A stretch of DNA of 64,000 nt, from the NCBI GenBank assembly GCA_037446255.1, contig JBBIIY010000002.1, forward strand, positions 1 through 64,000, given 5' to 3'. Below the pieces are notes generated by a model. It was not told the origin of the DNA, did not search any database, and was given only the letters and a program-made list of their open reading frames with translations. This stretch comes from Lithacetigena sp037446255 [NCBI: Coprothermobacterota bacterium]. GTDB taxonomy: Bacteria; Coprothermobacterota; HKB111. Shown here in pieces: positions 20,202 through 45,075 of the stretch. Every line of letters begins with the position of its first letter. The first letter of the stretch is position 1. A program made the position numbers and the translations under genes.

Positions 20202-21629
20202 TTATCCTTCTCTCTTTACTGTATCAAGAAGTATACCGTCGGTTGATTTCAGTTCTACCAGAAGGGGCATTTTCCCTATAGCATGGGTAGAACAAGAGAA
20301 ACAGGGGTCATAACACCTTATAGCCCCTTCAACCATGTTAAGCATACCTTCTTTAAGCTTTTTACCATCTACGAAATTTTTAGCAACATCATCAACTGCC
20401 TTAGAAATTGCCCAGTTATTGTGTCCGGTAGAAACTATTAAATTCGCTTTTTGCATAACACCGTCTTCATCAATCCAGTAGTGGTGAATTAAAGTGCCTC
20501 TGGGAGCTTCTACAACACCCACTCCCTGGGTTTGAAGTTCTCCAGATATAGCAATAATGTCGCTAGATAGTACATCGGGGTCATTAAGTATTTGACCAAC
20601 TCTTTCAGCCGAGTAAAGTAATTCAATCAGCCTGGCATAATGATAGACGAGTGAACCTTCAAGTGGCTTACCATTACCTAACGATTTATAGGTTTTCAAT
20701 TCCTCGTTAGCCAGGGGCGTGGTAATCTTTTCAGCATTATTCACCCTGGCCAAGGGTCCTACACGATAAACGCCTTCCGGATAACCCAGTTTCTTATAAT
20801 AAGGGAATTTTAGATATGACCAATCTTCTACTCTTTCTTCAATATAATCAAGATAGTTAGCTGGTTTAAATCTTTCCCTAACTTTCCCTTCCGAATCTAC
20901 TAATTTTAAAGTGCCATCATAAAGCTCAAGACTATCACCCTCATTTACTAATCCAAGGTATCCACTGGGAAATTTGCCAAACTTTTCTATTGTATCCATA
21001 TTAGCTCCTATCCAGGTCTTAGCAATAGAAATGCCTTCCTGAATATAAGCAATCATGGTATCTAATTCTGAAAGAATGCTATCTCTAACTTCAGCAGAAA
21101 GCTGTGTATTTACCCCGCCTGGAACAGCAAAGGTGGGGTGGATTCTTCTTCCAGCAACTTTAGCAATGATTTCCTGTCCATATTTGCGTAGCTTGACCGC
21201 TTTTAAAGCTAATTCCGGGTTAGCTAAAACTAATCCTACCACATTTCTTAATGCAGGATCGCTGTCCCAACCTAATAAAAGGTCTGGACCTGCAAGATGA
21301 AAGAAATGCATGGCGTGAGATTGAACATATTGACCCATATGTACGAGTTCGCGTAATAATTTTGCTGGCTTTGGGGGTTCTACACCAATTAAAGCATCGC
21401 AAGCTTTAGCGGCTGCTAAATGGTGACTTACAGGGCATATCCCACAAATACGCGGTGTTATTTGAGGCATTTCAAAATAAGGTCTTCCCTGGGTGAATTT
21501 TTCAAAACCTCTAAATTGGTCAACATTTACAAAAGTTTTATCTACCTTCCCGTAATCATTTAGATAAATGGTAACTCTGGCATGGCCTTCTATTCTGGTA
21601 ACTGGTGAAATAGTTATTTTTTCGCCCAT
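20202..21629 (-). CDS. hoxH: [NiFe] hydrogenase large subunit, group 3 (HoxH/HydL-like)
   Basis: This 475-residue catalytic subunit has both Ni-Fe ligand pairs: R-I-C-G-I-C-P near residue 61 and D-P-C-F-S-C-S-T-H near residue 445. About 25 residues follow the last motif, forming the tail normally removed by the maturation protease encoded next. Both terminal ligands are Cys, not Sec. The sequence style and the HoxEFU-like partners indicate a cytoplasmic group 3 enzyme that couples H2 to NAD(P)(H), possibly with ferredoxin as in the electron-bifurcating NiFe-HydABCSL of Acetomicrobium mobile. That assignment is inference from gene content. Confidence 0.95.
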   Translation of the reverse strand: MGEKITISPVTRIEGHARVTIYLNDYGKVDKTFVNVDQFRGFEKFTQGRPYFEMPQITPRICGICPVSHHLAAAKACDALIGVEPPKPAKLLRELVHMGQYVQSHAMHFFHLAGPDLLLGWDSDPALRNVVGLVLANPELALKAVKLRKYGQEIIAKVAGRRIHPTFAVPGGVNTQLSAEVRDSILSELDTMIAYIQEGISIAKTWIGANMDTIEKFGKFPSGYLGLVNEGDSLELYDGTLKLVDSEGKVRERFKPANYLDYIEERVEDWSYLKFPYYKKLGYPEGVYRVGPLARVNNAEKITTPLANEELKTYKSLGNGKPLEGSLVYHYARLIELLYSAERVGQILNDPDVLSSDIIAISGELQTQGVGVVEAPRGTLIHHYWIDEDGVMQKANLIVSTGHNNWAISKAVDDVAKNFVDGKKLKEGMLNMVEGAIRCYDPCFSCSTHAIGKMPLLVELKSTDGILLDTVKREG

Positions 21630-21638
21630 AGGTTCCTC

Positions 21639-22184
21639 CTAATCATATTTTAGTAAATCACCCTTTAAAACAGGTACTCTTCCTTCCAGCAATTCTTTAA
21701 GAGCAGTATAGATAGAATCAGCTGGAGGTGGGCAACCAGGTATAAAGAAATCAACTTTTACAATATCTTTAACTGCTTTTACTTTGGGGAGTAATTTGCC
21801 AAGTTCATCTGAGGTGGGAATTTTACCATTTTTAGTACTTTCTGTATCAATATACCCTCTGGTAAGAAGTTCTTCTTTGCTAAAGTAGTTGCGCATGGTG
21901 GCAATTCCACCAAAAACAGCACAGTCTCCGATAGCGATTAATATTTTACATTTTTTTCTCAAATGTCTGGCTTCTTCTTCGTGAAGGTCTGTTCCAATAG
22001 CGCCTTCAATAATTCCAATATCTACCCCTTCTTCGGGTGGATGTTTTAAGTCAGTTACAGGAGTGGAGGTGAACTCCACGCCTGCCTGAATTAATTCAAC
22101 AATTCTTTCGTCCATGTCAAGTATAGACATATGACAACCTGCACATGCTTCTAACCAGGTTGATGCAAGTTTGACTTTTGCCAC
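21639..22184 (-). CDS. hoxY: [NiFe] hydrogenase small subunit (HoxY/HydS-like)
   Basis: This 181-residue protein binds the proximal 4Fe-4S cluster through E-A-C-A-G-C-H near residue 13, I-G-D-C-A-V-F-G-G and P-G-C-P-P-P. It has no Tat signal and no medial or distal cluster domain, as expected for soluble group 3 hydrogenases. It sits 9 bases upstream of hoxH. Confidence 0.95.
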   Translation of the reverse strand: MAKVKLASTWLEACAGCHMSILDMDERIVELIQAGVEFTSTPVTDLKHPPEEGVDIGIIEGAIGTDLHEEEARHLRKKCKILIAIGDCAVFGGIATMRNYFSKEELLTRGYIDTESTKNGKIPTSDELGKLLPKVKAVKDIVKVDFFIPGCPPPADSIYTALKELLEGRVPVLKGDLLKYD

Positions 22185-22195
22185 TTTATCCTCCT

Positions 22196-23902
22196 TTAAC
22201 CTAAAGCTTTAATTAGATCTTCAATAATGGCTTTGTCTGTTTTCACACCTTCGGGAGCTTCAATGATTGATGAAATAATCTGAGTTTTACCTTCTAAGTT
22301 GGTGATGGTTCCCGAGGTTTCCAGCCAGGTTGCAGAAGGAATAATTAAGTCTGCTCTTTCAGTCAGGGGTGAAACAAAATTGCTTATTACAATTAAATAA
22401 CCAATATCTTTTAAGGAAGCCAGCAGGTTAGAGTCACCGCTGGAGTCAGAAGCTACTATTAAGGATACATCACTTTTACCAAAAGTACTATTTAATCCTT
22501 GCTTAACTGCTCCCATAGAGTTTGCTGACTTATAAAGTGGAAGAAAAACGGCTTTAACTTTCTCAAGAGTTTCTAAATCTGTTGATTCAACCTGGGGATT
22601 CAGAATTACGACAACTTTATTATTATTCCCGAGGGTGTTGACTAATTTACCAGCCTCGGAGGTCTTGAAGATTTCTGAAGCATAAAAGGATAAGGAATTT
22701 TCATCATCAGTAACAATATAGAGTTTAGCATCATTGGTTACTGCTCTTTTCACCCAGGAAGCAACTACTCCGTGAGAAGTTGAGGGGTCAACTTTATAAA
22801 GTACTATAGCTTCTGCAGTAAGTATGTCTTCCAGGCAGCCATCACTGGATAGTTCAATTACCTTCTCGTTGTAATTTTCCATTAAACCAGTATTTTTAGA
22901 TTTGAGAGAAGTTGAGAAAAGTTGATTAAAGACTTCAAGAGCTTCATTGGTAGCTTTAGGGCTAATAAGTCCGCCCGGGTTTTTAGCTTCTTTAAGTTTT
23001 AAAGCAGCTTTTTTAATAACATCCTCGTAAGTTATTAGTTCTCTTTTACCTTCTTGCCTGATTATTGGATGAGATACTCTTTTTCTTTTTTCATATAAGG
23101 GTGTAAATCTACCAAGTTCACAGAGGATTCCATGATTAACAGAAGATTCCCAATCGCCCCAAATTTTTATCAAATGATTTGCTTTAGTAAAAGCTAAAAT
23201 TCCACAACCCATACTACAGTTAGCACATACAGATTTTGTTTTTGTCATTTCTGCAGTTTTGCCTAGATAAGCACCAATCTTATCAGATAAGGAACCAGTA
23301 GGACATACTTGCACACAAACACCGCAGGAAACGCACGACGAAGCTTTAAGAGGACTTTCCATATCAGGTGAAAGCATGGTATGTGCGCCACGATTAACCA
23401 TACCTAAAACATAGTGACCGGCCAAGTCTGAACAGGCACGAACGCATCTTCTACATAGAATGCAGCGGTTGTGTTCTAACAGTATATATTTGTGTCCGAA
23501 GTCGGTAGGGAATTTATTCTGGTAAGGTGAGAAGGCAAAGTGGTCTATACCATACCGATATCCCATATTTTGTAGTTCACAGTCTCCCGATACTTCGCAG
23601 TACATACAATAGTGGTTTCTTTCAGCAAATAGCAGGTTAAGAATAAACTTTCGTGTTTCTACAACCCGAGGTGATTCTGTTTCTACTTCTAAACCTTGAG
23701 TAGCTGGAAGAGTGCAAGCAGGTTGCAGTGTACCTTGCTTGGTTTCTACCACACAAAGCCTGCAGGCTCCAATAGGGTTCAATTGGTCATGATGGCATAA
23801 GGTGGGAATGTCTATACCAAAAGTCTTAGCTGCCTGCAATACTGTTAAACCTGGGTCTACTTCTATTTCATTTCCATTAATTTTTAACAATAATTTTCCC
23901 AT
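22196..23902 (-). CDS. hoxU: NuoG/HoxU-like iron-sulfur subunit with molybdopterin-type C-terminal domain
   Basis: This 568-residue electron-transfer subunit contains, in order, a 2Fe-2S ferredoxin domain (C-H-H-D ... C-R-L-C), a His-Cys 4Fe-4S segment (H-Y-C-M-Y-C), two 4Fe-4S clusters (C-I-L-C-R-R-C and C-V-S-C-G-V-C), a further C-A-N-C-S-M-G-C cluster, and a ~300-residue molybdopterin-oxidoreductase-like domain with no obvious cofactor site. It is much longer than classical HoxU (about 240). I chose the ATG at 23902, 8 bases after GGGAGG, over the one at 23920; M-G-K-L-L-L-K is the family start. It should pass electrons between the flavin subunit and HoxY. Confidence 0.85.
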   Translation of the reverse strand: MGKLLLKINGNEIEVDPGLTVLQAAKTFGIDIPTLCHHDQLNPIGACRLCVVETKQGTLQPACTLPATQGLEVETESPRVVETRKFILNLLFAERNHYCMYCEVSGDCELQNMGYRYGIDHFAFSPYQNKFPTDFGHKYILLEHNRCILCRRCVRACSDLAGHYVLGMVNRGAHTMLSPDMESPLKASSCVSCGVCVQVCPTGSLSDKIGAYLGKTAEMTKTKSVCANCSMGCGILAFTKANHLIKIWGDWESSVNHGILCELGRFTPLYEKRKRVSHPIIRQEGKRELITYEDVIKKAALKLKEAKNPGGLISPKATNEALEVFNQLFSTSLKSKNTGLMENYNEKVIELSSDGCLEDILTAEAIVLYKVDPSTSHGVVASWVKRAVTNDAKLYIVTDDENSLSFYASEIFKTSEAGKLVNTLGNNNKVVVILNPQVESTDLETLEKVKAVFLPLYKSANSMGAVKQGLNSTFGKSDVSLIVASDSSGDSNLLASLKDIGYLIVISNFVSPLTERADLIIPSATWLETSGTITNLEGKTQIISSIIEAPEGVKTDKAIIEDLIKALG

Positions 23903-23904
23903 TT

Positions 23905-25524
23905 TTATAACCTCCCACATTTATTTGCTGGGCAATATCCAGTTTCTATGTGATTTATAAATTCACTTTTAAAGTATTTTAAAGATTCAAGTATCTGGTT
24001 GGCAGCTGCCTGACCTAATCCACAAAATGAGGTATTTTTCATAACATTAGCTAAGTTTTCCATGAAATCAAGCTCATTAATTTCAACATTTCCAGAAGTA
24101 ACCCTGTTAAGTAGATCTAAAGCTTTTGGTAAACCTACTCTACAGGGAACGCACTTACCGCAGGATTCGTGATTGAAAAATGCGAGTAGATTTTTTAGGA
24201 AATCTATTACACACCTGGTTTCGTCTAAAACAAGAATTGCTCCAGAGCCCTGCCCTGCTCCGATTTTCCTTACAGAATTCCAATCAATTGGAACATCCAG
24301 GTGGTCGGGTGTGATAAAGCTTCCTGAGCTACCGCCAAGTTGAACTAATTTAAGGTTTTTACCACCTTTGATGCCGTAACCGATTTCGTATATAAGTTCT
24401 TTCAAAGTAAATCCAAAAGGTACCTCTATTACTCCTTTAGCATTTACATCTCCAAAAAGGGTGAACACTTTAGTTCCTCTTGAGCCTTCAACACCCAGAC
24501 TTCTATACCATTCAGCACCTTTTAAAATAATAAGCGGTATGTTTGCGAGAGTTTCCACATTATTTATAACTGTTGGTTTTGCCCATAAACCTTCAGTGGA
24601 AGGATAAGGTGGTTTTGAACGAGGTTCTCCTCTCTTGCCTTCCAAAGATTCCATTAAAGCAGTTTCTTCACCACATACATAAGAACCTGCACCTATTCTT
24701 ACTTCTACATCAAAATCAAAATTAGTCCCTAATATATTATTCCCCAATAATCCAATTTCTTTTGATTGTTTAATGGCCAAGTTTAATCTGTCAATAGAGA
24801 GATCGTATTCTCCGCGTACATAAATAAACCCTTTATTAGCCCCAACAGCATAGCCTGCAATACTCATAGATTCAATGATAGAATGAGGATCACCTTCCAT
24901 AATCACTCTATCTTTAAAAGTACCCGGCTCTCCTTCATCTGCGTTACAAATAATATATTTTGGTTTTGCCAGGGCTTTAGCTGTTAATTCCCACTTAAAA
25001 CCTGTAGGAAATCCCGCACCACCACGGCCTAATAGTTCTGAAGCTTTCACTTCGGCAATTACCTGCTCTGGTGTCATTGTTGATAAAACATGAGCTAAAG
25101 CTTGATAACCATCGTGGGCAATATACTCTTTAATATCTTCAGGGTTAATGAGTCCAACATTTCTTAGAATAATACGAGTTTGTTTCTTCATTATTTCTTC
25201 TTCAATTGGAACATCCATTTTCACTTTTGCTGGTAAGTCAATTTCATACATTAATTTTTTTACAGGTCTTCCTTTGAGGAAATGCTCTTCAACCAAATAA
25301 GGTATATCATCTATATTATTTATTACATAGACAAGTCCACCTGGATAAACAGTTAATTGCACTCCTTCTTCAATTCCCCAGCCACCGGTTCTAAGAATTT
25401 GCACCTCGTTTTCTAATCCTTTTTTGATGATTTCTTCCTTAAGTTTTGTTTCAACTTCAAAAGCTCCTCTAAGTATGCTTCTGGAATCGGTACTTAACAA
25501 AACATGAAGTCTATAAATTTTCAT
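23905..25524 (-). CDS. hoxF: NuoF/HoxF-like NADH-binding flavoprotein with cysteine-less N-terminal domain
   Basis: This 539-residue protein has an N-terminal thioredoxin-like domain (1-95), the FMN/NAD(H) domain (G-R-G-G-A-G-F-P-T-G and C-N-A-D-E-G-E-P-G), an SLBB region, and a C-terminal 4Fe-4S site (C-G-K-C-V-P-C plus a later Cys). Compared with the paralogue at 25982-29059, the four 2Fe-2S ligands of the thioredoxin-like domain are replaced by Ser11, Ser16, Gly48 and Glu52, so that cluster should be absent. The protein ends after the NuoF core without the extra 2x4Fe-4S tail seen in HydB. It is the probable NAD(H) site of the hydrogenase. Confidence 0.9.
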   Translation of the reverse strand: MKIYRLHVLLSTDSRSILRGAFEVETKLKEEIIKKGLENEVQILRTGGWGIEEGVQLTVYPGGLVYVINNIDDIPYLVEEHFLKGRPVKKLMYEIDLPAKVKMDVPIEEEIMKKQTRIILRNVGLINPEDIKEYIAHDGYQALAHVLSTMTPEQVIAEVKASELLGRGGAGFPTGFKWELTAKALAKPKYIICNADEGEPGTFKDRVIMEGDPHSIIESMSIAGYAVGANKGFIYVRGEYDLSIDRLNLAIKQSKEIGLLGNNILGTNFDFDVEVRIGAGSYVCGEETALMESLEGKRGEPRSKPPYPSTEGLWAKPTVINNVETLANIPLIILKGAEWYRSLGVEGSRGTKVFTLFGDVNAKGVIEVPFGFTLKELIYEIGYGIKGGKNLKLVQLGGSSGSFITPDHLDVPIDWNSVRKIGAGQGSGAILVLDETRCVIDFLKNLLAFFNHESCGKCVPCRVGLPKALDLLNRVTSGNVEINELDFMENLANVMKNTSFCGLGQAAANQILESLKYFKSEFINHIETGYCPANKCGRL

Positions 25525-25527
25525 CTT

Positions 25528-25992
25528 TTATTCCTCCATATAAGCATCAAGAATCTCAGGTAACTGTGTAACAGTAACATTTTTATAAATATCACTATCT
25601 ACCATCATGACCGAAGCTAAGCTACATAATCCAAGGCAGGATTGTTCTTCAAGAGTGAACTGACCATCACAAGTTGTTTCTCCAATACCTAAATTTAATT
25701 TCTCACTTATAGCTTCAACTAATGAATCATACTCTTCAAGTTTACAGGGAGGGCTAGAACATATTTTGATAATATGTTTTCCTCTGGGTTTTAGCGAGAA
25801 CATAGAGTAAAAGCTTGCTGTAGAGTAAAGTGAACTAACTGGTATTTTAAGTTCCTTACTTACAGTTTTTAAAACTTCAGCAGGTAAATAATTATCAGAG
25901 AATAAATTTTGAATTTTATGTAATAAAGTTAGCAAAGGTTCCCCGGTCTCTTTATATTCCCTGATCAATTGTCCTACTTCTTCATTCTTCAT
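25528..25992 (-). CDS. hoxE: NuoE/HoxE-like 2Fe-2S subunit
   Basis: This 154-residue thioredoxin-fold ferredoxin has four cluster cysteines in the NuoE spacing: C-S-S-P-P-C and, about 40 residues later, C-L-G-L-C. It overlaps the end of the NuoF-GltD fusion by 11 bases and precedes hoxF by 3 bases, forming an E-F-U-Y-H order with the genes downstream. Confidence 0.9.
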   Translation of the reverse strand: MKNEEVGQLIREYKETGEPLLTLLHKIQNLFSDNYLPAEVLKTVSKELKIPVSSLYSTASFYSMFSLKPRGKHIIKICSSPPCKLEEYDSLVEAISEKLNLGIGETTCDGQFTLEEQSCLGLCSLASVMMVDSDIYKNVTVTQLPEILDAYMEE

Positions 25993-28900
25993 CTGTAACC
26001 TCCTTTACATCACATCTTAAACATCTACCACATTCAGTTATAACCTGTTTAGAGTTAAAAGATTTAACAACTTCTTTAAAATTACTTATTCTTTTAGCAG
26101 AAGAAAGCATTTCGGGTTCTTGCCTTTTAACCGGAACTTCTTCCTCGGGTGGAATTGCAAAAGCAAAGTCGTAAACTGTTTTAAGTTGAGAAAGCCGATC
26201 TTCACCACCATTAAAGAAAGCATCAATAGTTTTAGCAAACCTCTTTCCTTGAGACATAGAACCACTGACTGTGGCTGGACCGGTTACTACATCTCCTCCA
26301 GCATAAACCATAGGAATAGAACTTTCCAAAGTGTGGTGGTTAACAATAACCTGCCCATTCTTGGCTAATTGAATTCCAATTTCCATGAGTAAGCCTTCGG
26401 TTTCTATGGATTGTCCAACAGCAAGAATGACAGTATCACAATACTTCAATATTTCCTCGTTAGTAGCAATAGGGACTCTTCTTCCGTTGTCGTCAAAATA
26501 ACCGAGTGTCATTTTTGCGTATTTGATAGCTGTTACTTTACCATTTTCACCGACTATGGAGGTGGGCGCACCTAATAAAATAAAATTAATGCCTTCATGT
26601 TCAGCTTCTTCAATTTCTCTGTGGTCAGCAGGCATATCTTCTTTTTCTCTGCGATAAAGAATGGTTACTTCCTTTGCTCCCAATCTTAGAGAAGACCTAG
26701 CTGCATCTATTGCCACATTACCTCCACCAATTACTACTACTCTTTCTCCTATAACTATGGTTTCATTGCTATTCACCTTATCTAAAAATTCCAAACCTGA
26801 CCAGACTCCATTAAGGTTACTTCCATCAATCTTCAGTGTTTGCCCCTTAGAGGCTCCTATGGCAACCAAAACTGCTGCGTATCCTTCGCGTTTTAGTTCT
26901 TCAAGGCTGATATCAATACCTATTTTGGTGTTTAGTTTAATATCTACTCCTAAATCGGTAATATTTTTTATTTCTTTCCTGAGTATTTCTTTAGGAAGTC
27001 TATATTCAGGTATAGCATACCTTAACATACCCCCAGCTTCACTTTTTGCCTCAAAAATAGTTACCTTATATCCAAGTTTAGCTAAGAAATAACCGGCTGT
27101 TAAACCTGCAGGTCCTGACCCTACGATAGCAACTCGGTGATTATTAGATGCGAGTTTCTTTACCCCTCTCTCTTTTAAATACAGCTGATACTCGTCCCAA
27201 TGGCTGTAAACATAATCAACAATATATCTTTTAACATCATCAATAGCTACAGGAGTATCAACTTGATTTCTTCTACATACATGTTCACATGGACGATGAC
27301 ATACCCTTCCACAAATTGCTGGAAGAGGGTTCTCTTCTATTATCACACTGTAAGCATCAAATATTTTACCTTCAAGACAGAGCTGTAAATAAGCAGGAAC
27401 ATTCAAGTTGATAGGACATTCGTTTTCACAGGGAGATATCATTAGAGAATCACAAACACCAGCAGGGCAACGCTTATCAATGATATGAGTTTCATATTCT
27501 TTTCGGAAATGTTTCAAAGTTGATAAAACTGGATTAGGAGCAGTTTGGCCTAATCCACATAGAGATGTCTGCTTTATCATTAAGCCAATAGATTCAATTA
27601 AATCAAGGTCTTCCAGTTTTCCTTGCCCACGTGTTATTCTATTTAATATTTTTAATAATTCACGTGTACCCACCCGACAGGGAGGGCATTTACCGCAAGA
27701 TTCATCAGCCGTAAAGGTTAGGAAAAATTTTGCTAAATCTACCATGCAACTTGAATTGTCAACGACTATTAACCCCCCTGATCCCATAATAGCCCCTATA
27801 GCTGCAAGAGATTCAAAGTCTAAGGGGGTATTTATCATATGAGAAGGAATGACACCGCCAGATGGACCCCCAGTTAAAGCTGCTTTAAATTTTTCTCCTT
27901 TGGGGATACCTCCACCGATTTCATAAATAACATCTTTTAAGGGAAGTCCCATCGGAATTTCTACCAATCCAGAGTTATTTACTTTTCCCGCAAGTGCGAA
28001 AACCTTGGTACCCGGCGATTTTTCCGTACCCATGCTCCTAAACCATTGAAACCCGTGAAATATAATCAAGGGTATATTAGCTAAGGTCTCCACATTATTT
28101 ATTACGGTTGGTTTATCCCATAGTCCTTTTTGAGCAGGATAAGGTGGTCTTGGTCTAGGCTCTCCTCTTTTACCTTCAATTGAAGCTAATAGAGCTGTTT
28201 CCTCTCCACATACAAAAGCTCCAGCTCCGATTCTAATCTCAATATCAAAGTTAAATCCACTGTTTAATATATTGCTGCCTAAAAGACCTTTATTTTTTGC
28301 TTCCTTTATAGCCCATTCCATCCTTTCTATAGCCAGAGGATATTCAGCTCTTACATATACATATCCTTTGGTAGCACCAATAGCATAGGCGGCAATAGTC
28401 ATTCCTTCAATTACGGAATAAGAACTACCTTCAAGTATACTCCTATCCATAAATGCTCCTGGATCTCCTTCGTCAGCATTACAAATTATGTATTTCGGTG
28501 AGCCTTCAGCTTTACTGCAGAATTCCCATTTTAACCCGGTGGGAAATCCTGCTCCACCACGACCTCTAAGCCCTGAAGTTTTAATTTCTTCAATGACCTG
28601 TTGAGGAGACATCTCGTAAAGAGCTTTTGCTAAAGCGAAGTAGCCATCACGAGCGATGTATTCTTCTATCTTATAAGGGTCAATAGTTCCGCAGTTTTGA
28701 AGAACAAACCTTGCCTGTTTTTTAAAGAAAGGAACCTCATCTATTGTTGGAATAACCTGGTCTTTTCCTGGTTCCGTAAAAAGCAATCTTTCAACTAATC
28801 TACCTTTCAAGAAATGCTCTTCAACGATATCTTTTATATCTTCAGTACCGACTTTTCTATAGATAACGCCTTCGGGATAAATAAGTATCAAAGGTCCCTG

Positions 28901-29059
28901 TTCACAAGCTCCGCGACATCCTGTTTCAATTACCTGAACTTCATCGCTGAGGTTATAGTTTTGTAATTGTTCATTCAAAGCCTCTTCTAATGTCTTTGAG
29001 CCTGAACTGATACAACCCGTACCAGCGCAAACCAAAGCATGTATTCTAAATAATTTCAT
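25982..29059 (-). CDS. NuoF-GltD fusion flavoprotein
   Basis: This 1025-residue protein fuses two enzymes. Residues 1-95 are a thioredoxin-like 2Fe-2S domain with ligands Cys11, Cys16, Cys48 and Cys52. Residues ~110-540 are NuoF: G-R-G-G-A-G-F-P-T-G at 166-175 for FMN/NAD(H), and a 4Fe-4S site at Cys455, 458, 461 and 501. Residues ~540-1025 are a GltD/NfnB-type module with an N-terminal iron-sulfur domain (Cys544, C-G-R-V-C-H-R-P-C-E-H-V-C near 583-595), FAD motif V-G-S-G-P-A-G at 646-652 and NAD(P) motif G-G-G-N-V-A at 778-783. It could connect NAD(H), NADP(H) and ferredoxin pools. It lies between a NuoE-HATPase-thioredoxin-fold set and the hydrogenase genes. Confidence 0.9.
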   Translation of the reverse strand: MKLFRIHALVCAGTGCISSGSKTLEEALNEQLQNYNLSDEVQVIETGCRGACEQGPLILIYPEGVIYRKVGTEDIKDIVEEHFLKGRLVERLLFTEPGKDQVIPTIDEVPFFKKQARFVLQNCGTIDPYKIEEYIARDGYFALAKALYEMSPQQVIEEIKTSGLRGRGGAGFPTGLKWEFCSKAEGSPKYIICNADEGDPGAFMDRSILEGSSYSVIEGMTIAAYAIGATKGYVYVRAEYPLAIERMEWAIKEAKNKGLLGSNILNSGFNFDIEIRIGAGAFVCGEETALLASIEGKRGEPRPRPPYPAQKGLWDKPTVINNVETLANIPLIIFHGFQWFRSMGTEKSPGTKVFALAGKVNNSGLVEIPMGLPLKDVIYEIGGGIPKGEKFKAALTGGPSGGVIPSHMINTPLDFESLAAIGAIMGSGGLIVVDNSSCMVDLAKFFLTFTADESCGKCPPCRVGTRELLKILNRITRGQGKLEDLDLIESIGLMIKQTSLCGLGQTAPNPVLSTLKHFRKEYETHIIDKRCPAGVCDSLMISPCENECPINLNVPAYLQLCLEGKIFDAYSVIIEENPLPAICGRVCHRPCEHVCRRNQVDTPVAIDDVKRYIVDYVYSHWDEYQLYLKERGVKKLASNNHRVAIVGSGPAGLTAGYFLAKLGYKVTIFEAKSEAGGMLRYAIPEYRLPKEILRKEIKNITDLGVDIKLNTKIGIDISLEELKREGYAAVLVAIGASKGQTLKIDGSNLNGVWSGLEFLDKVNSNETIVIGERVVVIGGGNVAIDAARSSLRLGAKEVTILYRREKEDMPADHREIEEAEHEGINFILLGAPTSIVGENGKVTAIKYAKMTLGYFDDNGRRVPIATNEEILKYCDTVILAVGQSIETEGLLMEIGIQLAKNGQVIVNHHTLESSIPMVYAGGDVVTGPATVSGSMSQGKRFAKTIDAFFNGGEDRLSQLKTVYDFAFAIPPEEEVPVKRQEPEMLSSAKRISNFKEVVKSFNSKQVITECGRCLRCDVKEVTDEE

Positions 29060-35802: not shown

Positions 35803-36219
35803 GTGAAAGAAATTACGCTTGGAATTATCAAACCAGATGCAGTAGAAAAAAAATTGATAGGAAAAATCATAAGTAAGATTGAAAATTATCCATTAACCAT
35901 TACTCATTTAAAAATGGTGTATTTACGGAGACACATTCTTGATGAACTTTATAAGGAGCATATAGGAAAATCTTTTTTAGCTGGATTGATTGAGTTTATG
36001 TCTTCCGGTCCGGTTGTTTTATTTATACTTGAAGGTGAAGACGCAGTCAAAACTTTAAGGTCTATTTGCGGAGATACCAATCCTGAAAAGGCTTTACCTG
36101 GTACCATAAGGGGGGACTTTGGAGAAGGATTACCAAACAACGCTATTCATGCCTCTGACTCTCAGGAAAGTGCAAAAAGAGAAATACAGCTTATATTTCC
36201 AGAAAACGAGTTAAATTAA
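35803..36219 (+). CDS. ndk: Nucleoside diphosphate kinase
   Basis: This 138-residue protein matches Ndk throughout: I-I-K-P-D-A-V near the start, and the phosphohistidine in N-A-I-H-A-S-D-S near residue 118, preceded by R-G-D-F-G. It balances NTP pools by phosphate transfer. It starts at GTG after AAAGGAG, and its 3' end overlaps the convergent NapH-like gene by 4 bases. Confidence 0.96.
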   Translation: MKEITLGIIKPDAVEKKLIGKIISKIENYPLTITHLKMVYLRRHILDELYKEHIGKSFLAGLIEFMSSGPVVLFILEGEDAVKTLRSICGDTNPEKALPGTIRGDFGEGLPNNAIHASDSQESAKREIQLIFPENELN

Positions 36220-36998
36220 TATAAGTTAAGGGTTATATTTTTACAGGTTGAAGTACATTTCAAACAGCGGATGCATTCAGGGGAGTTAGCTTCTTTATGG
36301 ATATCAATATGTGCGGGGCAAATTTTAATACACACTCCACAATCATTACAATTTTGTTGGTTTACTTTCATTTTAACAAGGCTGGTAGAGTTAAATAAAC
36401 CAAAAATAGCTCCAAGTGGGCATATTACCCGACACCAAAATCTTTCAATTACTATACCCGCTACAACTACAGCAACGAGTATTATAATTTTTAAATAAAA
36501 AAGCGGTCCAATTAAACTTTGTAAACTTTGGTCAAAAATTGTCAAAGGGATACCAGCCTGGATCATTCCTAAGGGACATAGTTTAGAAAACCAGGGTTCA
36601 CCAGTAATGTAGGGAATAATTATTACTAAAATTAGCAGAGAAAGATATTTTATATAAGTTAGAAAATGCTTATGTGGAAGAAAAAGCTTTTTGGATTTAA
36701 TTTTATATATCCAGTCTTGAAAATATCCAAAGGGACAAAGAAATCCACAACTAAACCTTCCTGAAAGAGCTCCAATAAAGCCTAATACTCCGATTGTATA
36801 AACAGGAAGAATCTTTAAAACAAAAAAATGTTGAATAGTTCCAATAGGACAAGCACCAGAGGCCAGGGGACAAGCATAACAATTAAAAACTGGAACAGGA
36901 ACCTGCCTTAAACAAGGAGCTAAAAAAGGAAGGTTAAAAAATATTGCGCTAATTGGTTGTATGAGATATCTGAAACGGAACAATATATTCAATTTCAA
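36216..36998 (-). CDS. NapH/YccM-like polyferredoxin membrane protein
   Basis: This 260-residue integral membrane protein has about five membrane segments, cytoplasmic cysteine motifs C-G-F-L-C-P-F-G and C-R-V-I-C-P-L-G, a periplasmic-side C-Y-A-C-P-L cluster, and C-terminal 4Fe-4S ferredoxin motifs C-N-D-C-G-V-C and C-I-R-C-L-K-C. Such proteins move electrons across the membrane. It starts at TTG, two bases after the stop of a small CxxC membrane protein and downstream of the predicted seleno-thioredoxin. It may therefore donate reducing power to that extracytoplasmic thioredoxin. Confidence 0.85.
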   Translation of the reverse strand: MKLNILFRFRYLIQPISAIFFNLPFLAPCLRQVPVPVFNCYACPLASGACPIGTIQHFFVLKILPVYTIGVLGFIGALSGRFSCGFLCPFGYFQDWIYKIKSKKLFLPHKHFLTYIKYLSLLILVIIIPYITGEPWFSKLCPLGMIQAGIPLTIFDQSLQSLIGPLFYLKIIILVAVVVAGIVIERFWCRVICPLGAIFGLFNSTSLVKMKVNQQNCNDCGVCIKICPAHIDIHKEANSPECIRCLKCTSTCKNITLNLY

Positions 36999-36999
36999 G

Positions 37000-37179
37000 T
37001 TACTTTAAACCCATACAGGATAAGCATACTAAAATGGCATTTTTAAAAACAATGACTACTTCTTCTCTACTAATACCCCAAATAATACAATAAGAAAAAG
37101 CAACTAATAGCACTACGGTTATTATTCTATATTTCCTTTTAAATATTTTTCTATCTCCTCTCTGAACTCTTGAGCCCAT
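37000..37179 (-). CDS. Small CxxC membrane protein (CD1871A-like), overlapping gene
   Basis: This 59-codon frame overlaps the last 58 bases of the thioredoxin-like gene in another frame. It encodes a basic N-terminus (R-K-I-F-K-R-K-Y-R), one membrane segment (I-I-T-V-V-L-L-V-A-F-S-Y-C-I-I-W-G), a spacer and a C-terminal V-C-L-S-C-M-G-L-K. This architecture matches the small CxxC proteins (CD1871A type) often found beside thioredoxin and 4Fe-4S membrane proteins in anaerobes. The ATG at 37179 has no clear ribosome binding site; a start closer to the membrane segment is possible. Confidence 0.6.
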   Translation of the reverse strand: MGSRVQRGDRKIFKRKYRIITVVLLVAFSYCIIWGISREEVVIVFKNAILVCLSCMGLK

Positions 37180-37673
37180 TGGATTCTGAAACCTAACCAG
37201 ATTTTTCTTATATAACCCTGGCGGTCAATTAAGAAAGTTACAGGTATGCCTTTAACATTATATTTTTTGGCAACCTTAAGGTCGTGGTCATAAAGTGATA
37301 TAAAATTAATATTTCTGATTCGTTTGAATTCTTCCATATCCGCGATTGCTTTATTGGTATCAGGGGTATCTAAATTAATTCCGATTACCTCAAAATTCAA
37401 ATCTTTATATTCTTCATAAAGGGTGGAAAAGAAGGCACCGCCTTCTATGCAGGGCCTTCAATAACTTGCCCAAAACTCTAATAAAATTACTTTTCCAAGG
37501 TAATCCTTAAGGTTATGTCTTAACCCTTCTCCATCTTTAAGTGAAAAACTTGGAGCAGAGTTCCCTTCAATAGGTGATTCTTTATCTGGCAATATAACTT
37601 TACATCCGGATAGTGTTATGGTAGTTAGAATAATTATGAAGATTAAAATATTTATTGCTTTTAATTGTTTCAA
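37122..37673 (-). CDS. Predicted selenoprotein: TlpA-like thioredoxin lipoprotein (UxxC)
   Basis: Two frames that a standard call splits (37673-37458 and 37400-37122) are one continuous frame interrupted by a single TGA at 37460-37458. Residues 1-24 are a lipoprotein signal with lipobox L-S-G-C; residues ~38-183 are a TlpA/AhpC-type thioredoxin fold. The active site reads E-F-W-A-S-Y-[TGA]-R-P-C, so the TGA falls exactly on the first Cys of the CxxC motif. A 7-bp hairpin with a GGU loop starts 11 bases after the TGA. I read the TGA as selenocysteine (Sec72). The start is TTG behind AGGAGAG. TGA is a normal stop elsewhere (speD, the NuoE gene at 40619). Confidence 0.85.
37430..37446 (-). promoter_or_regulatory. 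Candidate bacterial SECIS hairpin
   Basis: In the mRNA, AGAAGGC and GCCUUCU form a perfect 7-bp stem closed by the loop GGU. Eighteen bases separate the UGA from the loop, inside the window known for bacterial SECIS elements, and the loop begins with G as required. It lies within the coding sequence (E-G-G-A-F-F). Confidence 0.75.
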
Positions 37674-37732
37674 AAAATCTCTCTCCTAAAATATAATTAA
37701 AAAAACTTAAATAATGTTATTATATCTTAAAT

Positions 37733-40618: not shown

Positions 40619-41068
40619 ATGGATGGAGAAGTAAAAACAATTTCTGATGATTACTCTGAAAGAAGCGAATTAATACCAATTCTTCAAGAAGTTCAGGAGA
40701 AAGAAGGTTTTTTATCAGAAAAGTCGTTGGAAAAAATATCTAAAACACTTAATATATCTCAAACTGAAATTTATGCGGTAGCTACCTTTTACTCTCAATT
40801 TAAGTTTACTCCCCCTGCCCTTCATAAAATAAAAGTATGTTTGGGAACTGCCTGTCATGTTAAAGGTGGTGAAAAAGTACTGGAAGCAGTAAAAAGGTCA
40901 TTGAAGTTGGAAAATGGGGATACTACACCTGGTCTGGAATATAGCGTTGAAAGAGTTGCTTGTATCGGATGTTGTGCTTTAGCTCCCTGCGCTACCATTG
41001 ATGACAATGTCTATGCCAAACTTACCCCTAACAAAATCCAGCATATTATTGCAGAAATGGAAGGATGA
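40619..41068 (+). CDS. NuoE/HydC-like 2Fe-2S subunit
   Basis: This 149-residue thioredoxin-fold ferredoxin has cluster cysteines C-L-G-T-A-C and C-I-G-C-C, and additional C in A-L-A-P-C. It is the first gene of the second NuoEFG-like module. GCGAGGATG-type sequence precedes the ATG, and a TATAAT at 40567-40572 is a candidate -10. It ends in TGA, five bases before the next start. It should pair with the NuoF subunit encoded next. Confidence 0.92.
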   Translation: MDGEVKTISDDYSERSELIPILQEVQEKEGFLSEKSLEKISKTLNISQTEIYAVATFYSQFKFTPPALHKIKVCLGTACHVKGGEKVLEAVKRSLKLENGDTTPGLEYSVERVACIGCCALAPCATIDDNVYAKLTPNKIQHIIAEMEG

Positions 41069-41072
41069 TCTT

Positions 41073-42956
41073 ATGAACCTTGATTATTTAAGAGAAAAAG
41101 CCTTACAAGAATGGAAAGAAATTGAGGATCCCAAAATTCCAATAATTACTGTAGGTTCGGCAACCTGTGGCAGAGCTGCAGGAGCTCTAGAAGTTTTATC
41201 AGCCATAAAAACTAAATTGGTGGAGAATAATATTGAAGCTCGAGTGTTTGAGGTAGGGTGTATTGGAATGTGCTACGGAGAGGTTATTGTTGATGTAACC
41301 CTCCCTTCAGCCTCATCTATCCTATATCACGAAGTAAATTCTGATATTGCCCAAAAGATTGTAGAAGAGCATATTTCAAATAATAAAATCCTATTTAACC
41401 ATGCCCTGGGTACACGAAGCAATTTAAAGTATGAAGGTATAAATCCTTTTTCAGAACACCCCTTTTTTAAAGAGCAGGTTCGTATAGCTTTAAGAAACTG
41501 TGGAATTATAGACCCGGAAAATATAAACCACTATTTAGCTAACGATGGTTATAAGGGATTAGAAAGAACTTTATCTCTTAAGCCACCAGAAGTTATAGAA
41601 GAATTAAAAAAATCAGGTCTTAGAGGTAGAGGTGGTGGAGGATTCCCCACTGGCATGAAATGGGATTTCTGTTACAAATCTAATGGAGATAAAAAATACA
41701 TTGTATGCAATGCTGATGAAGGTGACCCCGGTGCTTTTATGGATAGATCTCTCCTGGAAGGTGACCCTCATTCAGTTCTTGAAGGTATGCTGATTGGAGC
41801 TTATGCCATAGGTGCCACTGAAGGTTATATTTATGTACGAGCCGAGTATCCCCTGGCTATCAAGCGTTTGATGATTGCAATTAAACAGATGGAAGCAATG
41901 GGGTTATTAGGAAGTTCTATATTAAATAGTAATTTTTCTTTTAAGATAAAAATTAAAGAAGGCGCAGGAGCGTTTGTTTGTGGAGAAGAAACTGCCCTTA
42001 TAGCCTCTATAGAAGGTAAAAGGGGTATGCCACGCTCACGGCCACCATTTCCAGCTCAAAAAGGTCTATGGGGAAAACCTACTATAATTAATAATGTTGA
42101 AACTTTTGCTAATGTGTCTGCCATAATGAGTAAAGGTGCAGACTGGTATTCTTCTTACGGTACCGAAAATAGTAAGGGTACAAAAACATTTGCTTTGGCA
42201 GGTAAAGTAAACCATACCGGATTAATTGAAGTTCCTATGGGGATAACTCTTAATGATATTATTTTTAAAGTTGGAGGAGGTATTCCTAATGAGAAAATAT
42301 TTAAAGCTGTACAAACCGGAGGACCTTCTGGAGGTTGTATACCCTCAACCAAGCTTGATTTACCTGTTGATTATGATTCCCTAGCCAGCGTAGGTTCAAT
42401 CATGGGATCCGGTGGTATGGTAGTTATGGATGAAGAAACATGTATGGTAGATATCGCACGCTACTTTCTCGATTTTACTCAAAAAGAATCCTGCGGAAAA
42501 TGTGTTCCCTGTAGATTAGGTACAAAACAACTTTTGATGCTGTTGGAAAAAATAACTCAGGGTAATAGTGAAATACAAGATTTAACTCTACTTCATAACC
42601 TGGCAGAAAAAGTTAAATCAGGATCTTTATGCGGTCTTGGTCAAACAGCACCTAACCCCATTATAACAACTTTAAAATACTTCAAGGACGAATATATAGC
42701 TCATATACAGGATAAGGTTTGCCCGGCAAAGGTCTGTAAAAACCTTATATATTTTAAGATTGATGCAGATAAATGCAAAGCCTGCACTATTTGCCTTAAA
42801 GCATGCCCTGTAACTGCTATTAAAGGAGCTGTAAAACAGGTACATGTTATAGAACAGGATAAGTGTATTAAATGCGGTGTATGTTTGGAGGTCTGTCCTC
42901 CAAAATTCAGTGCAGTTATAAAGCTTTCTGGAAAAGAGGAATCAAAGAATGAATAA
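41073..42956 (+). CDS. NuoF/HydB-like NAD(H)-binding flavoprotein
   Basis: This 627-residue protein has an N-terminal thioredoxin-like domain with Cys32, Cys63 and Cys67, the FMN/NAD(H) domain (G-R-G-G-G-G-F-P-T-G, C-N-A-D-E-G-D-P-G), SLBB, the 4Fe-4S site C-G-K-C-V-P-C, and a C-terminal double 4Fe-4S ferredoxin (C-K-A-C-T-I-C-L-K-A-C, C-I-K-C-G-V-C). This full layout is that of HydB in electron-bifurcating HydABC. An in-frame ATG at 40998 lies inside the NuoE gene; I chose 41073 after AAGGATGATC, where homology begins. It overlaps the next gene by 8 bases. Confidence 0.92.
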   Translation: MNLDYLREKALQEWKEIEDPKIPIITVGSATCGRAAGALEVLSAIKTKLVENNIEARVFEVGCIGMCYGEVIVDVTLPSASSILYHEVNSDIAQKIVEEHISNNKILFNHALGTRSNLKYEGINPFSEHPFFKEQVRIALRNCGIIDPENINHYLANDGYKGLERTLSLKPPEVIEELKKSGLRGRGGGGFPTGMKWDFCYKSNGDKKYIVCNADEGDPGAFMDRSLLEGDPHSVLEGMLIGAYAIGATEGYIYVRAEYPLAIKRLMIAIKQMEAMGLLGSSILNSNFSFKIKIKEGAGAFVCGEETALIASIEGKRGMPRSRPPFPAQKGLWGKPTIINNVETFANVSAIMSKGADWYSSYGTENSKGTKTFALAGKVNHTGLIEVPMGITLNDIIFKVGGGIPNEKIFKAVQTGGPSGGCIPSTKLDLPVDYDSLASVGSIMGSGGMVVMDEETCMVDIARYFLDFTQKESCGKCVPCRLGTKQLLMLLEKITQGNSEIQDLTLLHNLAEKVKSGSLCGLGQTAPNPIITTLKYFKDEYIAHIQDKVCPAKVCKNLIYFKIDADKCKACTICLKACPVTAIKGAVKQVHVIEQDKCIKCGVCLEVCPPKFSAVIKLSGKEESKNE

Positions 42957-45075
42957 TGTAAATATAACTATAAATAACAAAAAAATAATTACCAGAGACG
43001 AAGATACTATACTGAAAGCTGCTTTACGAGAAGGAATCTATATACCTAATCTATGTTACCACCCTACTCTTTCTCCTTTTGGGGCTTGTCGGCTTTGCGT
43101 TGTAGAAGTAGAAAATATGAGAGGTTACCCGACATCCTGTACGACTCCTGTTCAAGAAGGCATGAAAATTAAAACCAACACTAAAACTTTAAACGAAATT
43201 AGAAAAACTGCTATGGAGCTTATACTTTCTGAACATCCACAGGACTGTCTTACCTGTGTAAAAAACCAAAAATGTGAATTACAATCATTATCAGCTTATT
43301 TAGGTATTAACAATTTAAGTTTCTCCAGAGTACAAAAAGACCTTCCCAAAGATTTAGATACACCTTTATTTTTTAGAGACCTGGACAAGTGTATTTTATG
43401 CGGTAGATGTGTCAGGGCTTGTCAGGAGCTCAGGGGTGTAGGAGCCATTGATTTTATTTATCGTGGATACGATTCTATTGTTGGAACAAAGTTTTCCAAA
43501 CCATTGCGAGAGTCTGAGTGCCGATTCTGTACTGCCTGTGTAGAGGTGTGCCCTACTGCAGCTCTATTTGACAAAAATACCCTATGGCTTCCCAAAGAAG
43601 AAAAAGAAAAGTATGTGGTACCCTGCACTCACAACTGTCCAGCAAATATAGATGTTCCAAAATATGTAAGATTAGTAGGAGAAGGTAATTACACTGAAGC
43701 TTTAGCTGTAATCAGAGAAAAAGTTCCTTTTCCTGCAACTCTGGGGAGAGTATGTTTCCATCCCTGTGAAACAACTTGTAGAAGACAGGAAATCAACACT
43801 CCTATTTCTATTAAAAACCTAAAAAGGGTTGCTGCAGATAAAGGAGATTGGGGTTACTGGAGGTCTAAGCTAACCAAAAAACCTGCAACAAATAAATCTG
43901 TAGGAATAATTGGATCAGGACCGGCAGGATTGACGGCAGCCTATCATCTTCTAAGACTCGGTTATAATGTAACTATCTTTGAAGCACTGCCAGAACTGGG
44001 TGGTATGATGAGATATGGAATCCCTGCGTATAGACTACCCAGGGAGGTATTAGATAGCGAAATACAGGAAATAATAAACCTGGGATTACAGGTGAAAACT
44101 AATTTTAAGGTAGATAACCTTGATTCGCTGATCAATGAATATTTAGCTATTCTTATAGCTGGCGGTGCACATTTAGGTATTAAGTTAGGTATTGATGGAG
44201 AAAATCTACCAGGAGTTTACGATTGTGTTAACTTCCTCAGAGATGTTGCCTCAGGAAAAAAGTTACTCCTGGGTAATAAGGTTGGAGTAATTGGTGGAGG
44301 TAATGCAGCTATGGATACAGCTCGTACAGCTCTCAGGTCAGGTGCGAAATCAGTAACTGTATTATACAGAAGAAGCCAGGCTGAAATGCCAGCTAACCCT
44401 GAAGAAATTGTTGAGACGGAAGAAGAAGGCATCAAAATAGAGTGTCTTACTTCTCCAGTTAAAATAGTTTCTAATGGACAGCGCCTTATAATAACCTGCG
44501 CTCAAATGATGTTAGGAGAACCCGATGAATCTGGAAGAAAAAGACCGATCCCCATAAAAGGGTGTGATATAGATAGAGAGTTTGATTCCATTATATTAGC
44601 TATAGGACAATCTTCAGAAATTCCCGAAGGTTGGGGTGTTTCACAAAATAGAGGGGTTATACAGGTTAATCAGAGTACTCTTGAAACAACCAGAAAAGGA
44701 GTTTTTGCAGCAGGAGATATAGTGCTTGGACCTGCCTCGGTTATTGAAGCAATCGCTCAGGGAAGAAAGTCTGCCTCAAACATTGACCGGTTCCTGGGAG
44801 GAACTGGAATGATAGACGAGATTTTTACTATTAGCGAGGCACCTCCCTGTCAGATTGGAAGAATAGATAATTTTTCAGATTTAGACAGGGTTTACCCTGA
44901 ATATGAAGACGAACACAGCAGAATTAATAGTTTTATTGAAGTCCAAAAATGCCTGGTTGATGATTTAGCTCATTTTGAAGGAAATAGATGCTTGAAATGC
45001 GATGCAAGGTTGCTGATTGAAGAGAATATTTTTCCACCAGAAAGTGAGCGAAGTTACCTGAACGAAGTTAAATAA
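42949..45075 (+). CDS. NuoG(N-terminal)-GltD fusion protein
   Basis: This 708-residue protein has a HydA/NuoG-type electron wire followed by a GltD/NfnB-type oxidoreductase. The wire comprises 2Fe-2S (Cys36, 47, 50, 64), a His-Cys 4Fe-4S site (His96, Cys100, 103, 109) and two 4Fe-4S sites (Cys148-158 and 191-201). The GltD part has its own cysteine domain (Cys226, 230, 269, 273, 277), FAD motif G-S-G-P-A-G at 322-327 and NAD(P) motif G-G-G-N-A-A at 449-454. No H-cluster, NiFe or molybdopterin domain is present. The GltD module replaces the hydrogenase domain of HydA, suggesting an NAD/NADP/ferredoxin-linked transhydrogenase-type complex. Confidence 0.9.
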   Translation: MNNVNITINNKKIITRDEDTILKAALREGIYIPNLCYHPTLSPFGACRLCVVEVENMRGYPTSCTTPVQEGMKIKTNTKTLNEIRKTAMELILSEHPQDCLTCVKNQKCELQSLSAYLGINNLSFSRVQKDLPKDLDTPLFFRDLDKCILCGRCVRACQELRGVGAIDFIYRGYDSIVGTKFSKPLRESECRFCTACVEVCPTAALFDKNTLWLPKEEKEKYVVPCTHNCPANIDVPKYVRLVGEGNYTEALAVIREKVPFPATLGRVCFHPCETTCRRQEINTPISIKNLKRVAADKGDWGYWRSKLTKKPATNKSVGIIGSGPAGLTAAYHLLRLGYNVTIFEALPELGGMMRYGIPAYRLPREVLDSEIQEIINLGLQVKTNFKVDNLDSLINEYLAILIAGGAHLGIKLGIDGENLPGVYDCVNFLRDVASGKKLLLGNKVGVIGGGNAAMDTARTALRSGAKSVTVLYRRSQAEMPANPEEIVETEEEGIKIECLTSPVKIVSNGQRLIITCAQMMLGEPDESGRKRPIPIKGCDIDREFDSIILAIGQSSEIPEGWGVSQNRGVIQVNQSTLETTRKGVFAAGDIVLGPASVIEAIAQGRKSASNIDRFLGGTGMIDEIFTISEAPPCQIGRIDNFSDLDRVYPEYEDEHSRINSFIEVQKCLVDDLAHFEGNRCLKCDARLLIEENIFPPESERSYLNEVK

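What the first reader, a model, noticed from the sequence alone, without database searches (positions are those of the whole stretch)
37122..37673. Probable selenoprotein: UxxC thioredoxin lipoprotein split by an in-frame TGA
One frame contains a single TGA located exactly where the first cysteine of the thioredoxin CxxC motif belongs (W-A-S-Y-[TGA]-R-P-C). Coding continues with normal TlpA-like sequence for another 111 residues. TGA is used as an ordinary stop in neighbouring genes, so whole-genome recoding is excluded. An extracytoplasmic, lipid-anchored Sec-thioredoxin would be unusual.
Basis: partly seen in the sequence, partly recalled or inferred. Interest (0 to 1): 0.9.

Follow-up and report, generated by a model that had tools for sequence, protein, structure and literature searches.

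The report
Selenium-containing TlpA/ResA-like membrane-anchored thioredoxin
A gene that looks broken by a stop codon almost certainly makes a complete exported redox protein, with selenocysteine inserted at its active site; proteins of this sort are already catalogued, so this is a well-supported new example rather than a new kind.

Summary
On the minus strand, window 37122-37673, a TlpA/ResA-like lipoprotein gene has one in-frame TGA (37460-37458) exactly at the first Cys of the thioredoxin motif (WASY-TGA-RPC), with 111 more codons open. The window belongs with Ca. Lithacetigenota (about 83% nt identity, syntenic, to two named species). Both have TGA at the same codon. Both genomes hold tRNA-Sec, selA, selB and a selD that itself has an in-frame TGA. 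A 7-bp hairpin with a GG(T/A) loop, 18 nt after the TGA, meets the published bacterial SECIS constraints and has the same loop as the selD hairpins there. dN/dS after the TGA is 0.08-0.15. So it is very probably a selenoprotein (0.93). It is not a new kind: UxxC relatives are catalogued, and 7 of 58 other genomes searched have TlpA-like genes with an in-frame TGA, 14 of 15 inspected at a UxxC/UxC motif. A NapH-like membrane iron-sulfur protein gene follows; that it feeds electrons to the protein is only a hypothesis. New member of a known kind, modest interest.

The parts
37122..37673 (-). TlpA/ResA-like thiol-disulfide oxidoreductase gene, 183 residues with Sec at 72, TTG start, TAA stop
   Evidence: Pfam AhpC-TSA 6.1e-25, Redoxin 3.7e-20, Thioredoxin_8 1.4e-12; best PDB sequence match ResA 4nmu, E 2e-18
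37458..37460 (-). in-frame TGA read as selenocysteine, at the first Cys of the CxxC motif
   Evidence: same TGA in L001 and L002
37449..37460 (-). UxxC redox motif (U-R-P-C), residues 72-75
   Evidence: Cys at position 72 in the Cys-type homologues
37430..37446 (-). SECIS-like hairpin AGAAGGC-GGT-GCCTTCT (7 bp, loop GGT; GGA in the two sisters); loop starts 18 nt after the TGA
37602..37613 (-). lipobox L-S-G-C (residues 21-24) after a hydrophobic stretch: predicted lipoprotein signal
   Evidence: read by eye from the translation; LSGC also in L001 and L002; motif knowledge recalled, no signal-peptide program run
37681..37686 (-). ribosome-binding-site-like GGAGAG 7 nt before the TTG start
   Evidence: read by eye
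36216..36998 (-). NapH-like membrane protein with C-terminal 4Fe-4S motifs, next gene downstream on the same strand (123-nt gap)
   Evidence: Fer4_5 3.4e-18; NapH/MauN family TIGR02163 1.9e-23, 83.3 bits, below its cut-off of 213.05; same order in L002

Best explanation
A selenoprotein. The mRNA hairpin 3' of the UGA recruits SelB with Sec-tRNA-Sec, so the ribosome inserts selenocysteine at codon 72 instead of stopping. The full-length product is exported, cleaved at the lipobox and lipid-anchored on the outer face of the cytoplasmic membrane, where a Sec72-Cys75 pair in a TlpA/ResA-type thioredoxin fold does thiol-disulfide (selenylsulfide) exchange, most likely as a reductase of disulfides in exported proteins. 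Shown: sequence, conservation, machinery in sister genomes, SECIS-like hairpin, homology. Inferred: Sec insertion itself, export, direction of the redox reaction and partners. The confidence is for the Sec-containing TlpA-like protein; the reductase role is less sure.
For: TGA at the same codon in the window and in two named Ca. Lithacetigenota genomes, which differ from the window's gene at 69 and 89 of 552 nt. tRNA-Sec (69.1 and 68.9 bits, gathering 47), selB, selA and selD over cut-off in 2 of 2 sister genomes, on one contig in each; selD and grdA there also carry an in-frame TGA. Purifying selection after the TGA: dN/dS 0.08, 0.11 and 0.15. SECIS-like hairpin in all three genes with loop GGT or GGA; the selD hairpins of the two sister genomes have stems of 7 and 8 bp and loops GGA and GGT. 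Published bSECIS constraints (loop 3-9 nt, upper stem 4-16 bp, G in the first two loop positions, spacing 16-37 nt, MFE at most -7.5; PMC13188914, passage seen) are met by 7 bp, GGT, 18 nt, -8.3 kcal/mol. In TlpA-like relatives, hairpins of at least 6 bp follow 9 of 10 UGA sites and 3 of 35 Cys sites as tabulated (2 further rows, L066 and L070, were set aside); two of the three (L061, L069) are UGA genes that the alignment put one or two residues out, so 11 of 12 against 1 of 33.
Against: The window's own genome is not held, so the machinery is seen only in sisters. Hairpin strength alone is not rare: 17 of 150 internal Cys codons of the window have one as strong under the same loose rule. In the window the lowest-energy fold of the stretch from the TGA on is a different one (-15.0 kcal/mol), and in L001 and L002 a different one wins at one of the four lengths folded. 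The low synonymous divergence after the TGA is not significant by permutation (p 0.056 for codons 73-90; p 0.26 for the longest unchanged run). The grdA UGAs of the sister genomes show no hairpin by my rule. No protein-level evidence.
Confidence: 0.93

Rival explanations
1. Pseudogene or sequencing error: the TGA is a broken or misread Cys codon (TGT/TGC) and the protein is truncated.
For: A TGA is one base from both Cys codons.
Against: Same TGA in genes that differ from the window's at 69 and 89 of 552 nt; dN/dS 0.08-0.15 after it; no other disruption of the frame.
Confidence: 0.02
2. The TGA is decoded, but as Cys or another amino acid by a suppressor or by Sec machinery charged otherwise; not selenium.
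For: No protein data; facultative Cys insertion at UGA is known in other systems (recalled).
Against: tRNA-Sec, selA, selB, selD all present in the sisters and a SECIS-like hairpin follows; TGA is a normal stop elsewhere.
Confidence: 0.04
3. A selenoprotein, but with a function in cytochrome c maturation, as for ResA/CcmG proper.
For: Best NCBIfam hit is ResA (1.4e-29, 103.3 bits) and best PDB hit is ResA.
Against: Below the ResA cut-off of 170 bits; the ResB family (PF05140) was found in 0 of 2 sister genomes, while 5 of 14 control genomes ring. Other maturation systems (CcmF type) were not searched.
Confidence: 0.07
4. An addition to the best explanation rather than a rival: the redox partner is the NapH-like membrane iron-sulfur protein encoded next to it, which hands electrons from inside the cell to the Sec-thioredoxin.
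For: Same order and the same 123-nt gap in the window and in L002, by alignment of NapH residue 1; in HKB111 one contig ends 42 nt into the napH-like gene and another begins at its residue 13. DsbD_TM (PF02683) found in 0 of 2 sister genomes while 10 of 14 controls ring.
Against: A CcdA-like DsbD_2 protein is over cut-off in one of the two genomes (PF13386; L130), with only a weak match holding stops in the other. Of 12 more distant NapH-like homologues inspected (the best-scoring; 41 of 117 genomes had some match) only 2 have a TlpA-like gene within about 4 kb by this query at E 0.01; a third has a CxxC-bearing gene two genes on (L120, by eye). In L002 the napH-like gene breaks off at the contig end after about 126 residues.
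Confidence: 0.25

Closest known systems
Prx-like thiol:disulfide oxidoreductase selenoproteins (PF00578, UxxC/UxxU) and Thiol-disulfide isomerase-like selenoprotein (cd02966/PF13905, UxxC)
   Same: Same Pfam domains (AhpC-TSA, Thioredoxin_8) and UxxC motif; listed in PMC9312934, PMC13188914 and, from the Sargasso Sea, PMC1088965 (passages and table rows seen)
   Different: From a candidate phylum; on a long branch with no supported sister in a tree of 51 rows; paired with a NapH-like gene. No member sequences of those listed families were aligned with it here
ResA / TlpA / CcmG (DsbE)
   Same: Domain, N-terminal anchor, position of the active-site motif, GIPVTF stretch that I take for the cis-Pro region (recalled)
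   Different: Sec instead of the first Cys; below the curated cut-offs of ResA (103.3 of 170 bits), TlpA (62.7 of 230) and dsbE (42.9 of 123.15); ResB in 0 of 2 sister genomes
ResA-like WAxxUGC motif-containing selenoprotein (NF041054)
   Same: ResA-like domain, WAxxU motif
   Different: 38.8 bits against a cut-off of 300; UxxC here, UGC in that family's name
SaoT thioredoxin-like selenoprotein (NF040730)
   Same: UxxC thioredoxin-like (table row seen)
   Different: Not among the NCBIfam hits of this protein at E 0.001

Membership tests
Bacterial selenoproteins | in-frame UGA aligned with a Cys of homologues | tested here: met
Bacterial selenoproteins | SECIS hairpin just 3' of the UGA within published constraints | tested here: met
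   controls
Bacterial selenoproteins | Sec machinery (selA, selB, selC, selD) in the organism | tested here: inconclusive
   present in 2 of 2 sister genomes; window's own genome not held, none in the window itself
Bacterial selenoproteins | selenium or Sec in the protein | not testable with these tools
   needs mass spectrometry or 75Se labelling
TlpA/ResA-like thiol-disulfide oxidoreductases | thioredoxin-fold AhpC-TSA/Redoxin domain | tested here: met
TlpA/ResA-like thiol-disulfide oxidoreductases | exported, membrane-anchored | tested here: inconclusive
   hydrophobic N-terminus and LSGC lipobox by eye in all three sequences; no signal-peptide program run
ResA proper (NF002854) | curated score cut-off 170 bits | tested here: not met
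   103.3 bits
ResA proper (NF002854) | ResB of the cytochrome c maturation system in the genome | tested here: not met
   0 of 2 sister genomes
WAxxUGC_long (NF041054) | curated cut-off 300 bits, UGC motif | tested here: not met
   38.8 bits; UxxC motif

The most novel reading that the evidence does not exclude
A two-gene system in Ca. Lithacetigenota in which a NapH-like membrane iron-sulfur protein drives a lipid-anchored selenothioredoxin on the outside of the cell, a trans-membrane electron route that stands in for DsbD/CcdA in a hydrogen-using, hyperalkaline serpentinite lineage.
Probability: 0.15. Interest if true: 0.6.

Novelty: new member of a known kind. Interest (0 to 1): 0.33.

Why it matters
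It adds a further selenoprotein to a candidate phylum for which glycine reductase is the selenoprotein named in print (passages seen), and shows a gene that a standard ORF call splits in two. The shared GGA/GGT hairpin loop of tlpA and selD suggests what this lineage's SelB recognises. If the NapH-like partner proves to be the electron donor, it would be a different way to power disulfide reduction outside the membrane.

Tried and rejected
Rejected: pseudogene or base error (conserved TGA; low dN/dS); whole-genome recoding (TGA is a normal stop in 9 of 55 long ORFs); two separate genes (one domain runs across the TGA). Tried and weak: excess synonymous conservation after the TGA was not significant; hairpin energy alone did not stand out against internal Cys codons (17 of 150), although by the same rule 6 of 7 TGA stops of ORFs of at least 180 codons have no hairpin and the seventh a weak one (-2.5 kcal/mol). 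ARAGORN and the Rfam gathering-threshold scan found nothing in the window. The tree of TlpA-like rows is poorly resolved, and its bootstrap had not settled; I do not use its U/C label counts, because rows L020 and L030 were labelled U for a TAG near the end of the match and two L066 rows for a TGA elsewhere. It does join a UxxC and a CxxC gene of one genome (L063) as close paralogues. An adjacency test for NapH-like and TlpA-like genes gave 2 of 12, which weakens the partner idea. No structure prediction was run; the sequence matches to solved ResA structures were enough for the fold. A literature search for NapH, thioredoxin and TlpA together listed one paper, on Shewanella sulfite reductase, of which I saw the listing only.

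Full report
WHAT IS THERE. Minus strand 37673-37122 encodes 183 residues with one in-frame TGA at codon 72 (37460-37458), in W-A-S-Y-U-R-P-C; 111 residues follow, then TAA. A GGAGAG stretch lies 7 nt before the TTG start (by eye). The N-terminus is hydrophobic and ends in LSGC, a lipobox (motif recalled). Read with Cys at 72, the protein matches AhpC-TSA, Redoxin and Thioredoxin_8, NCBIfam ResA at 1.4e-29 but under the cut-off, and ResA structures (best E 2e-18), whose first active-site Cys aligns with residue 72 in the three alignments shown.

WHOSE GENOME. No whole genome is held for the window. A scan of genome contigs with the protein gave 7 loci; the best two are Ca. Lithacetigena glycinireducens HKB111 (87% aa) and Ca. 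Psychracetigena formicireducens BS5B28 (82% aa); the other five are at 25-32%. DNA of the two aligns collinearly with the window over 3797 of 3797 bases at 82.8% and 9050 of 9112 bases at 83.4% identity. Both belong to Ca. Lithacetigenota, described from the Hakuba and The Cedars serpentinite sites, with selenocysteine use and glycine reductase noted by the authors (PMC9751293, passages seen). The window's exact species is not known.

IS THE TGA REAL AND KEPT. Both sister genes have TGA at the same codon, with residue 73 varying (R, I, M). dN/dS is 0.08, 0.11 and 0.15 for the part after the TGA and 0.22-0.23 before it, so the downstream part is under protein-level selection. TGA otherwise acts as a stop in the window.

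MACHINERY. In both sister genomes tRNA-Sec, selB, selA and selD are all over their curated cut-offs, on contig C183 of G001 and C124 of G002. selD carries an in-frame TGA in each and so does grdA; the GrdB family match has none. In the 14 control genomes the tRNA search passes the cut-off in 5, selB in 2, selA in 1 and selD in 2.

SECIS. AGAAGGC-GG(T/A)-GCCTTCT, 7 bp, starts 11 nt and its loop 18 nt after the TGA, in all three sequences. In the window the lowest-energy fold of the stretch from the TGA on is a different one (-15.0 kcal/mol); in L001 and L002 the hairpin is the fold at three of the four lengths tried. It meets the four published constraints (PMC13188914, passage seen). The selD hairpins of the same two genomes have the loops GGA and GGT. 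Controls: of 2314 TGA trinucleotides in the window, 4 have a GGW-loop hairpin of at least 6 bp at 15-35 nt and only this one also lies in a long open frame (the rule was set after seeing the hairpin). Of TlpA-like genes in relatives, 9 of 10 UGA sites and 3 of 35 Cys sites have a hairpin of at least 6 bp; two of the three (L061, L069) are UGA genes placed one or two residues out by the alignment, giving 11 of 12 and 1 of 33; L066 and L070 were set aside and L068 gave no alignment at E 0.001. Against: 17 of 150 internal Cys codons have a hairpin as strong under a looser rule, grdA sites have none by that rule, and synonymous conservation is not significant.

HOW UNUSUAL. A search of 60 genomes (the two sisters among them) gave matches in all 60; the printed table, cut off at its end, holds besides the sisters 15 matches with one TGA inside, in 7 of the 58 other genomes. 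I fetched all 15: in 14 the TGA is the U of a UxxC or UxC motif, in 1 (L066) it lies elsewhere. Of the 13 that a motif scan could read, 11 have an N-terminal 15-residue mean hydropathy of at least 1.8, the best of all possible starts being taken; L060, L063 and L065 were flagged for a lipobox-like Cys, L063 and L065 convincingly. Reviews list UxxC Prx-like and thiol-disulfide isomerase-like selenoproteins and a UGC-type TlpA selenoprotein (PMC9312934, PMC13188914; passages seen). A search for selenoprotein, lipoprotein, thioredoxin, selenocysteine, SECIS and extracytoplasmic together found 0 papers, and one for bacterial selenoprotein, signal peptide, selenocysteine and periplasmic found 1, on formate dehydrogenases (listing seen); neither says anything about papers outside that library. 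So the exported Sec-thioredoxin is ordinary in kind.

NEIGHBOUR AND MECHANISM. The next gene on the strand (36998-36216, 123-nt gap) is a NapH-like membrane protein with iron-sulfur motifs. The order and gap are the same in L002, where the gene breaks off near the contig end; HKB111's contig ends 42 nt into that gene with the rest, from residue 13, on another contig. DsbD_TM was found in 0 of 2 sister genomes, but a DsbD_2 protein is over cut-off in one and only a weak match with stops in the other, and 2 of 12 distant NapH-like homologues inspected have a TlpA-like gene near. I therefore hold the electron-donor idea at low probability. ResB was found in 0 of 2, so a general disulfide reductase for exported proteins is more likely than a ResA role; both are inferred.

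VERDICT. Selenoprotein reading confirmed as far as sequence can; a new member of a known kind in a candidate phylum; interest 0.33.

Noticed in passing
L073, L074 (selD of G002, G001): selD itself has an in-frame TGA (AKAAG-U-AAK) followed by a hairpin of 7 or 8 bp with loop GGA or GGT, the same loops as in the tlpA genes.
   Followed up: partly
L063 (G025:C11): A UxxC and a CxxC TlpA-like gene stand side by side and join as close paralogues in the tree, a likely recent Cys/Sec exchange.
   Followed up: no
L056, L057, L063, L067, L068; L058: The SECIS-like hairpins of these TlpA-like UGA genes share a GGAGTT(T/G)CC apex (GGAGTCTCC in L058) 16-17 nt after the TGA, although the genomes differ; shared coding sequence could be part of the reason.
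   Followed up: partly
window 20202-29059: Minus-strand cluster of NiFe hydrogenase subunits with several NuoE/NuoF/NuoG-like proteins, one 1025-aa protein looking like a fusion with a glutamate-synthase-like oxidoreductase; a second such set at 40619-45075 on the plus strand. Names recalled from the sequences, not scanned.
   Followed up: no
L131 (G001:C21): DsbD_2-family match of 21.6 bits, below cut-off, with a TGA and a TAG inside.
   Followed up: no
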